Origin: an uncultured delta proteobacterium
Lineage (GTDB): Bacteria > Desulfobacterota > Desulfobulbia > Desulfobulbales > Desulfurivibrionaceae
DNA: 64,000 bases
Reading direction: 5' to 3'
NCBI GenBank assembly: GCA_903869265.1
Contig: CAIPYE010000014.1
Coordinates: 124,001-188,000 of the forward strand
Shown piece by piece: positions 50,987-52,912 of this stretch. Position 1 is the first letter of the stretch. Each line of letters starts with the position of its first letter. A model generated the notes under the pieces. It saw only the letters and a list, made by a program, of their open reading frames with translations, searched no databases and was not told the origin of the DNA. Position numbers and translations under genes: made by a program.

Positions 50987-52912
50987 CTAAAAAACGGAGC
51001 TGAGGACCACCTCCTCCTGGACATGCATGAGACGGTCAATGTCCAGGAGAATGGTCACGCCCTCGGCGAGTTTTGCCATGCCCAGTAGGCACTGGCTGTC
51101 GACCACGCTGCCGAATTTTGGCGGATCTTCCACATCCTGCTCTTTGATGAAGACCACCTCGGACACCGCATCGACAATGATGCCGATGAGCCGGGAGCCG
51201 GTGAGGCCGGAAACTTCCACCACGATGATGCAGGTGCGGGCATCGTATTCCGCGCTCTCCATGCCGAACTTGCCCCGCATGTCCATGACCGGGATGATTT
51301 TATCCCGCAGGTTGATAACCCCTTTGAAGAAAGGCGGCATTTGCGGCAACTCGTGGACGGTCATCAGGCCGATGATTTCCCGGACATCAAGGATGCCGAG
51401 GCCGTAACGTTCGTTGCCCAGGGTGAAAATAAGATACTTGCCCTCCCGGGAGGCAAGGGCCTGGTCGATGCCCAGCTTTTTGGCTGCGCCCCGTGGTCGG
51501 GCCGCGCCCTGTTCTGCTCCCGCCGCAGTCGGCAGATTTTTGCAGGCGATGTCGGCAAAGCGGGTATCAACAAACTCGGCGAGATTGATGCGCCGTCCGA
51601 TCTCCATCTTGGTGGTCATGTAATCCTGGATGGCCTCCAGATCTTCACTCACAGGATAGAGGTTGTCCGTGGTGATTCCCTGGGGGTCGGAGAGCACGTT
51701 GCGTAACAGGGCGGGTTCGAGACCGATTTTTTTCTGCGGGTCGAGAAAAGCCACGGCGATCTCCGCCGCCTCGTCCACATGATCCCGGATATAGAGGCCG
51801 GATTCCACCAGCATGGTGGTGAATTCCTGCACCGCCTCCGGGTATTTCTTGAGGATATCCTCCCGGAAGACCACGACGCAGCAGGGGTGATCCTGCCAGA
51901 CCTCGCTTGAGAGGAACTGGCGCTCGGCAATGCCTGCGGTAATGGCCCGGGAGCCGATGGGCTCGGCCACCAGGAAACCGCTGGCTTCGGGATTTTCCTT
52001 TAAGAATTCCGGCATGGCCACCGGCGGCACCACGTCAAAAAGGACGTTGACCGCTTCCTTGCCCACCACCCCTGGCCGCAAACCCATCTGGGTGAAGTAC
52101 ATGTGGGCCAGCATGTTGTGGACCGACATCTTGTGGGGAATATAGAAGGTCTTGTGCTTGAAAAACTGCTGGTATGGCTTGGCATACTTGCCGGTTTTGT
52201 TGCGCACGCAGATGCTGCCGTTGCGGTGGGCAAAGAGCACCAGCTTGATGGGCACCCCGTAGCTGAACAGATCCATGGCCATGGGCGCCAGGATAAAGGC
52301 CCCATCCACCTCGCCGTTTTCCAGGGCGTTCTGCACCGGGTTCCAGCCCGGCATGCAGAGGGTGTCCAGGCTGAAGTGCTGCGGTTTTTTTTGGCCCGAA
52401 GCCACCTGGTGCTTGAGCACGCCCAAGGCCAGATGGTCGGTGATCTGGATATGGGCCATCTTGAGATGCACCTTGCCCTCGGCGCTCATCTTGGGGCCTT
52501 CTTCCTTTTTTGGGGCAACCGTTTTTTTCAGGCCAAAAATTTCATCGATGAGGACCTTGAGTTCGTCCGGGGTAAAGGGCTTAGCCACCACGCCGTTGGC
52601 TCCGGCCTCCTTGGCCTTGGCCACATAGGCCTTGTCGCCGTGGCCGGTGGCCATGAGAAAGGGAAGGCTCTTGAAGGTGTCTTGCTCGCGCATCCATTGC
52701 AGCAACTGGTAGCCGTCGCAGTTGGGCATGGACCAATCGCTGATGACCAGGGCAATGTCCGCTTCGGCGCCAAGTTTTTCCTTGGCATCGTTGCCATCCA
52801 CCGCCTCGACGATGTTGGTGAAACCGACTTGGCCGAGAATCCGGGCTTCCATTTTGCGCATGGTCCCGGCGTCTTCAACGAGTAAGATTTTCATCTGTGG
52901 ATCAAGAGCCAT
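50987..52912 (-). CDS. receiver / substrate-binding / CheW triple-domain protein
   Basis: A 641-aa protein starting at the ATG at 52912 (GAGGAGG upstream). Residues 7-127 are a receiver (VEDAGTMRK, Asp59 in VISDWSMPNCDG, Lys111). Residues ~148-470 resemble the NrtA/SsuA (NMT1) substrate-binding fold: GWNPVQNALENGEVDGAFILAPMAMDLFSYG, SVHNMLAHMYFTQMGL. Residues ~486-640 are CheW (FTLGNERYGLGILDVREI, GVINLRDKIIPVMDMR). There is no signal peptide, so the binding-protein fold should work in the cytoplasm. Its last part is duplicated at 37 kb. Confidence 0.9.
   Translation of the reverse strand: MALDPQMKILLVEDAGTMRKMEARILGQVGFTNIVEAVDGNDAKEKLGAEADIALVISDWSMPNCDGYQLLQWMREQDTFKSLPFLMATGHGDKAYVAKAKEAGANGVVAKPFTPDELKVLIDEIFGLKKTVAPKKEEGPKMSAEGKVHLKMAHIQITDHLALGVLKHQVASGQKKPQHFSLDTLCMPGWNPVQNALENGEVDGAFILAPMAMDLFSYGVPIKLVLFAHRNGSICVRNKTGKYAKPYQQFFKHKTFYIPHKMSVHNMLAHMYFTQMGLRPGVVGKEAVNVLFDVVPPVAMPEFLKENPEASGFLVAEPIGSRAITAGIAERQFLSSEVWQDHPCCVVVFREDILKKYPEAVQEFTTMLVESGLYIRDHVDEAAEIAVAFLDPQKKIGLEPALLRNVLSDPQGITTDNLYPVSEDLEAIQDYMTTKMEIGRRINLAEFVDTRFADIACKNLPTAAGAEQGAARPRGAAKKLGIDQALASREGKYLIFTLGNERYGLGILDVREIIGLMTVHELPQMPPFFKGVINLRDKIIPVMDMRGKFGMESAEYDARTCIIVVEVSGLTGSRLIGIIVDAVSEVVFIKEQDVEDPPKFGSVVDSQCLLGMAKLAEGVTILLDIDRLMHVQEEVVLSSVF

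What the first reader, a model, noticed from the sequence alone, without database searches (positions are those of the whole stretch)
50987..52912. Receiver - cytoplasmic substrate-binding fold - CheW in one protein
A phosphorylatable receiver, an NrtA/SsuA-like ligand-binding domain without signal peptide and a CheW adaptor are joined in one 641-aa chain. This could let a cytoplasmic metabolite directly gate a chemoreceptor array or kinase, combined with phosphorylation. No CheA or receptor lies nearby.
Basis: partly seen in the sequence, partly recalled or inferred. Interest (0 to 1): 0.65.

Follow-up and report, generated by a model that had tools for sequence, protein, structure and literature searches.

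The report
Cytosolic ligand-sensing coupling protein for chemotaxis
This gene makes a single soluble protein that joins a phosphorylation switch, a binding domain borrowed from a nutrient importer and the adaptor that plugs into bacterial chemotaxis arrays; many relatives in one bacterial phylum keep the same design, so it is probably a sensor that lets conditions inside the cell steer swimming.

Summary
It is not a chance fusion: 27 loci match nearly end to end at 57-95% identity, in at least 8 families of the phylum. The binding lobes are the best-conserved part, the 459-487 linker the least. Best reading: a CheV/CheWS-like array adaptor that carries its own cytosolic ligand sensor. The main orthologue is an orphan gene; relatives sit beside MCP/CheR/CheX genes, and all 36 genomes with a match encode one CheA type. 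The suggested ligands (sulfonate, nitrate, thiamine precursor) are not supported: the domain is closest to 3UN6, a zinc-bound S. aureus protein, whose exported relatives neighbour Ni-CODH genes (PMC6344411), and carries an invariant His/His/Glu/Cys-Cys set. A metal or thiol-reactive ligand is the best guess, untested. A CheW-fused cytosolic sensor is already known (CheWS), so this is a new variant, not a new kind.

The parts
50987..52912 (-). Whole gene, 641-aa REC-SBP-CheW fusion protein, apparently a single-gene unit
   Evidence: the flanking genes run on the opposite strand
52547..52888 (-). CheY-like receiver domain, residues 9-122
   Evidence: Pfam Response_reg 2.4e-23; E13, D14, D59, T89 and K111 invariant in 21 homologues; about 42% identity to E. 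coli CheY structures
52736..52738 (-). D59, predicted phosphorylation site
   Evidence: aligned with the DWNMPNMDG motif of CheY; invariant
51539..52495 (-). Cytosolic substrate-binding-protein domain, about residues 140-458
   Evidence: Pfam NMT1_2 144-386, 2.6e-27; 3un6 by sequence and by fold, Z 23
52343..52345 (-). W190, putative pocket residue (aligned with NrtA 2G29 chain W73)
52226..52228 (-). H229, putative pocket residue, kept in 3UN6 and the exported cousins
52118..52120 (-). H265, putative pocket residue (aligned with NrtA 2G29 chain H167)
51962..51964 (-). E317, putative pocket residue, kept in all branches compared
51878..51883 (-). C344-C345, vicinal cysteines kept in fusion, REC-SBP, cytosolic, exported members and 3UN6; absent from NrtA and the SsuA-like paralogue
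51452..51538 (-). Variable linker, residues 459-487
   Evidence: mean pairwise identity 0.23 against 0.65-0.82 for the domains; 462-486 under pLDDT 50
51020..51439 (-). CheW domain, residues 492-631
   Evidence: Pfam CheW 2.4e-34; E. coli CheW 1.5e-27
51377..51379 (-). E512, equivalent of E. coli CheW E38
   Evidence: role of the pair from PMC3828127
51305..51307 (-). R536, equivalent of E. coli CheW R62
   Evidence: PMC3828127

Best explanation
It is an auxiliary coupling protein of a chemosensory array with its own cytosolic ligand sensor. The CheW domain docks into the CheA/receptor array of the cell, most likely the one encoded in trans by the MCP-CheA-CheW-CheR-CheB cluster on contig C6. 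The binding-protein domain, kept in the cytosol, binds a small ligand; opening and closing of its cleft is passed to the array through the flexible linker and shifts CheA activity. The receiver, phosphorylated on D59 (probably by CheA, as for CheV), sets or resets this coupling, and CheX-type phosphatases may remove the phosphate. Shown: domains, conservation, fold, taxonomic spread, gene linkage of relatives. Inferred: array docking, phosphorylation, ligand binding, direction of the effect. Ligand: not known; best guess a transition metal (Zn/Ni) or another species that reacts with thiols, rather than sulfonate or nitrate.
For: Three domains over cut-off. Same architecture matched nearly end to end in 27 loci at 57-95% identity, in the order and in at least 8 families of the phylum. 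Receiver catalytic residues and CheW E512/R536 invariant; in E. coli CheW that pair is needed for chemotaxis (PMC3828127). Binding lobes 0.755 and 0.82 mean identity against linker 0.23, so the domain is under constraint. A second copy lies in MCP-MCP-[REC-SBP-CheW]-MCP-CheR (L074) and CheR-MCP-[REC-SBP-CheW] (L073) (L074's upstream MCP); L097 has an MCP directly upstream; L090 has [REC-SBP-CheW]-CheX-cytosolic SBP; REC-SBP without CheW lies beside CheR-CheB-CheW-MCP (L077) or an MCP (L076). 36 of 36 genomes with a match have the C6-type CheA, against 32 of 158 without; by genus 12 of 12 against 30 of 62 overall, p 4e-5. Its CheW is 55% identical to the C6 CheW and 35% to the C3 CheW. Precedents: CheWS, an array-anchored CheW-fused SAM sensor (PMC10653840), and NasS, a cytosolic NrtA-type sensor (PMC3795266).
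Against: The main orthologue was never seen beside che genes: only 3 of 43 REC-SBP-CheW loci have MCP, CheA, CheR, CheB or another CheW within 5 kb. Co-occurrence with CheA is confounded by motility and ancestry, and one of the 36 genomes (G118) shows only the CheW part. Ligand binding, phosphorylation and array docking are untested. The second lobe of the predicted structure is of low confidence.
Confidence: 0.6

Rival explanations
1. Plain CheV-like adaptor: the binding domain has lost ligand binding and serves as a spacer or protein-docking scaffold, so only phosphorylation regulates the array.
For: CheV proteins combine CheW and a receiver without any ligand domain, and one is present in this genome. 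The binding domain was recruited from the transporter binding-protein family and could have been repurposed.
Against: Pocket-type residues (W190, H229, H265, E317, C344, C345) are kept across fusion, stand-alone cytosolic, exported and 3UN6 branches, and the two lobes are the best-conserved part of the protein.
Confidence: 0.2
2. Sensor that acts outside the C6 array: it feeds a different kinase (for example the neighbouring histidine kinases, or the C3/C7 CheA systems) and controls something other than swimming.
For: The gene lies next to two histidine kinase genes in the window and far from che genes; other relatives of the REC-SBP module have TPR ends and sit beside ParA and Hsp70 genes.
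Against: The kinase neighbours were found only in close relatives (L027, L028), and other orthologues have unrelated neighbours. Its CheW is much closer to the C6 CheW, and the C6-type CheA always co-occurs.
Confidence: 0.15
3. Redox or sulfur sensor: the vicinal cysteines respond to polysulfide, sulfite or thiols, with array output, in sulfur-cycling bacteria.
For: C344-C345 invariant in every branch of the subfamily compared; a divergently transcribed rhodanese gene is kept next to the orthologue in many loci, some at only 53-63% identity.
Against: The rhodanese linkage is absent in distant orthologues; the same cysteines occur in exported ABC-type members and in zinc-bound 3UN6, which suggests a ligand or metal site rather than a redox switch.
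Confidence: 0.15

Closest known systems
CheWS (CheW-CheRlike SAM sensor of Treponema denticola, PMC10653840)
   Different: Sensor is a CheR-like SAM-binding domain, not a binding-protein fold; no receiver; CheW comes first
CheV
   Same: CheW and a phosphorylatable CheY-like receiver in one chain
   Different: CheV is CheW-REC; here REC comes first and a ligand-binding domain lies between. The genome also has a CheW-REC protein of CheV type (L116)
NasS (cytosolic nitrate sensor, PMC3795266) and the CmpC/NrtC regulatory domains
   Same: NrtA-family fold kept in the cytosol as a sensory or regulatory domain
   Different: NasS is a separate protein that works on the antiterminator NasT; the aligned NrtA chain K240 (K269 in precursor numbering, from memory a nitrate ligand) is Cys345 here
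3UN6-type NitT/TauT binding proteins of clade B Ni-CODH clusters (PMC6344411)
   Same: Related by sequence and fold, with the same conserved H/H/E/CC residues
   Different: Those are exported subunits of ABC importers; this one is a cytosolic signalling domain

Membership tests
CheW coupling proteins | CheW domain with conserved fold and E38/R62 pair | tested here: met
   PF01584 2.4e-34; E512/R536 invariant
CheW coupling proteins | Docks with CheA P5 and receptors | not testable with these tools
   needs pull-down, array imaging or kinase assay
CheV | N-terminal CheW followed by C-terminal receiver, nothing else | tested here: not met
   order is REC-SBP-CheW
Phosphorylatable receivers (CheY-like) | Acidic pair, phospho-Asp, Thr/Ser and Lys | tested here: met
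   E13/D14, D59, T89, K111 invariant
NMT1_2 / NitT-TauT-type binding proteins | Profile over cut-off and type II binding-protein fold | tested here: met
   96.7 bits against 24.7; fold match Z 23 to 3un6; lobe 2 of the model weak
Periplasmic ABC substrate-binding protein | Export signal and partner permease/ATPase genes | tested here: not met
   internal domain behind a receiver; the genes on either side in the window are kinase, rhodanese and others, not ABC genes
SsuA (aliphatic sulfonate-binding protein) | TIGR01728 above cut-off | tested here: not met
   54.3 bits against 163.5
Nitrate sensors/binders (NrtA, NasS) | Conserved nitrate-coordinating residues | tested here: inconclusive
   W and H kept, the aligned K is Cys; the list of nitrate ligands is from memory
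CheWS-like array-anchored cytosolic sensors | Ligand binding by the fused domain and location in the array | not testable with these tools
   works-like claim only; architecture analogous (PMC10653840)

The most novel reading that the evidence does not exclude
A cytosolic sensor of transition metal (for example nickel or zinc status linked to CO dehydrogenase) or of thiol-reactive species, made by moving a CODH-associated binding protein into the cytosol and wiring it into the chemotaxis array, so that cells steer by internal metal status, gated by phosphorylation.
Probability: 0.2. Interest if true: 0.75.

Novelty: new variant of a known kind. Interest (0 to 1): 0.55.

Why it matters
CheW was long seen as a passive linker; CheWS showed that it can carry a cytosolic sensor. 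A conserved second case with a classical binding-protein fold and a receiver in the same chain would suggest that internal-state sensing through adaptors is a general design, here in anaerobic bacteria whose taxis is little studied. The protein is soluble and conserved, so its ligand and its effect on CheA can be tested in vitro. It also gives a cytosolic handle on the unknown substrate of the Ni-CODH-linked 3UN6-type transporters.

Tried and rejected
In-frame TGA flagged in some relatives suggested selenocysteine in place of a conserved Cys; tblastn showed no stop inside the matched region, so this was dropped. An operon partner for the main orthologue was sought: neighbours differ between lineages, only a divergent rhodanese recurs. 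Structure prediction of the full protein and of the domain alone left lobe 2 uncertain, probably because the alignment is shallow. A search of another phylum through a Clostridia locus was not possible because the centre must be a genome handle, so the spread outside the phylum is not settled; plasmid records hold no place covering 80% of the protein. Literature searches found no paper describing this architecture; PMC10653840 lists 30 undescribed CheW architectures in a supplementary figure that could not be read, so it may be catalogued there. The tree does not make the fusions one clade and has many open forks, so the number of fusion events is unsettled. Thi5 and DszB share the fold and, from memory, use cysteines at the cleft; residue-level comparison was not possible.

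Full report
Observation. The reading frame is real and on the minus strand: 641 aa from 52912 to 50987. Pfam gives Response_reg 9-122, NMT1_2 144-386 and CheW 492-631, each far over its cut-off. The middle domain is related by sequence to solved binding proteins, best 3un6 (1.2e-18), then CmpC, NrtC and NrtA, and its model aligns with 3un6 at Z 23.0, rmsd 2.3 over 201 residues. The model is good for lobe 1 and poor for lobe 2, so lobe 2 rests mainly on sequence homology. There is no export signal; the domain is internal.

Conservation. A scan of genome contigs gave 27 loci that match nearly end to end at 57-95% identity, from records titled as Deltaproteobacteria, Desulfobulbaceae, Desulfurivibrio, Desulfobacterales or plain Proteobacteria. 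In 194 genomes of the order 36 have a strong match, most of them full length. A profile of the middle domain found open frames of about 645-734 aa in further families of the phylum, and the loci fetched from these were confirmed as REC-SBP-CheW by local phmmer. In 21 aligned proteins the receiver catalytic residues and CheW E512 and R536 are invariant; these last align with E. coli CheW E38 and R62, a salt bridge reported as needed for chemotaxis (PMC3828127). Mean pairwise identity is 0.69 for REC, 0.755 and 0.82 for the two lobes, 0.67 for the C-terminal part of the binding domain, 0.65 for CheW and 0.23 for the linker.

Relatives and context. The module occurs in other forms: REC-SBP alone, REC-SBP-TPR between a ParA-like and an Hsp70 gene, and stand-alone SBPs without signal peptide. 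The main orthologue is an orphan with differing neighbours. Relatives link to chemotaxis: L074 MCP-MCP-[REC-SBP-CheW]-MCP-CheR, L073 CheR-MCP-[REC-SBP-CheW]-kinase, L097 MCP-[REC-SBP-CheW], L090 [REC-SBP-CheW]-CheX-SBP, L077 REC-SBP with CheR, CheB, CheW and MCP, L076 REC-SBP with MCP, and L101, where an exported cousin with a twin-arginine N-terminus lies in a cluster with CheR, CheW, MCP, a PBP-like protein, CheA and CheB. Stated plainly, only 3 of 43 REC-SBP-CheW loci have such genes within 5 kb, and two of those are one duplicated lineage.

Partner array. The genome has three CheA, about ten MCPs, a CheV-type protein, four CheX and FliG. The CheW domain is 55% identical to the CheW of the C6 cluster and 35% to that of C3. 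All 36 genomes with a match carry the C6-type CheA, against 32 of 158 others (p 1e-20 by genome, 4e-5 by genus). This is not corrected for ancestry, and motile genomes in general may carry that CheA, so it supports dependence on an array but does not prove docking.

Ligand. Across fusion, REC-SBP, cytosolic and exported members and 3UN6 the residues W190, H229, H265, E317, C344 and C345 are kept; the cysteines are absent from NrtA and the SsuA-like paralogue. By alignment W190, H265 and C345 fall on NrtA chain W73, H167 and K240, which with an offset of 29 are W102, H196 and K269, from memory nitrate ligands. The lysine-to-cysteine change and the SsuA score of 54 against 163.5 speak against nitrate and sulfonate. 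Exported cousins in L099 and L100 adjoin ABC genes and a Ni-CODH gene, as described for clade B Ni-CODH clusters, whose authors note homology to 3UN6 and propose metal import (PMC6344411). Two CODH-like genes lie elsewhere in this genome, but no exported cousin was found there at 1e-30. A metal or thiol-type ligand is therefore the best guess, with modest confidence; the zinc in 3UN6 may be a crystallisation effect, and I could not read its coordinates.

Known kinds. CheWS is an array-anchored CheW-fused cytosolic SAM sensor (PMC10653840); CheV couples CheW to a receiver; NasS is a cytosolic NrtA-type sensor (PMC3795266). This protein combines the three ideas in one chain, in an order not described in the papers I could search. 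I file it as a new variant of a known kind.

Noticed in passing
window:53061-53963: Divergently transcribed two-domain rhodanese gene (3-mercaptopyruvate sulfurtransferase-like, below that model's cut-off) is kept next to the orthologue in close relatives and at lower identity in L044, L051 and L052.
   Followed up: partly
L079:3441-5321 and L081:2321-4201: REC-SBP-TPR variant (627 aa; TPR shown by Pfam in L079) between a ParA-like ATPase gene and an Hsp70 gene, a different output for the same sensory module.
   Followed up: partly
L082-L088: Stand-alone NMT1_2 proteins of about 310 aa without signal peptide and with the Cys-Cys motif, in several loci near genes that look like shikimate-pathway or mutL genes.
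   Followed up: no
L101:4239-13999: Chemotaxis cluster that contains an exported 3UN6-type binding protein and a second PBP-like protein on either side of an MCP gene.
   Followed up: partly
L003 and L004 (own genome, C5 and C4): NMT1/NMT1_2 or phosphonate-type binding-protein genes directly followed by membrane sensor genes (dCache-HAMP, HAMP-PAS), possible binding-protein/sensor pairs.
   Followed up: partly
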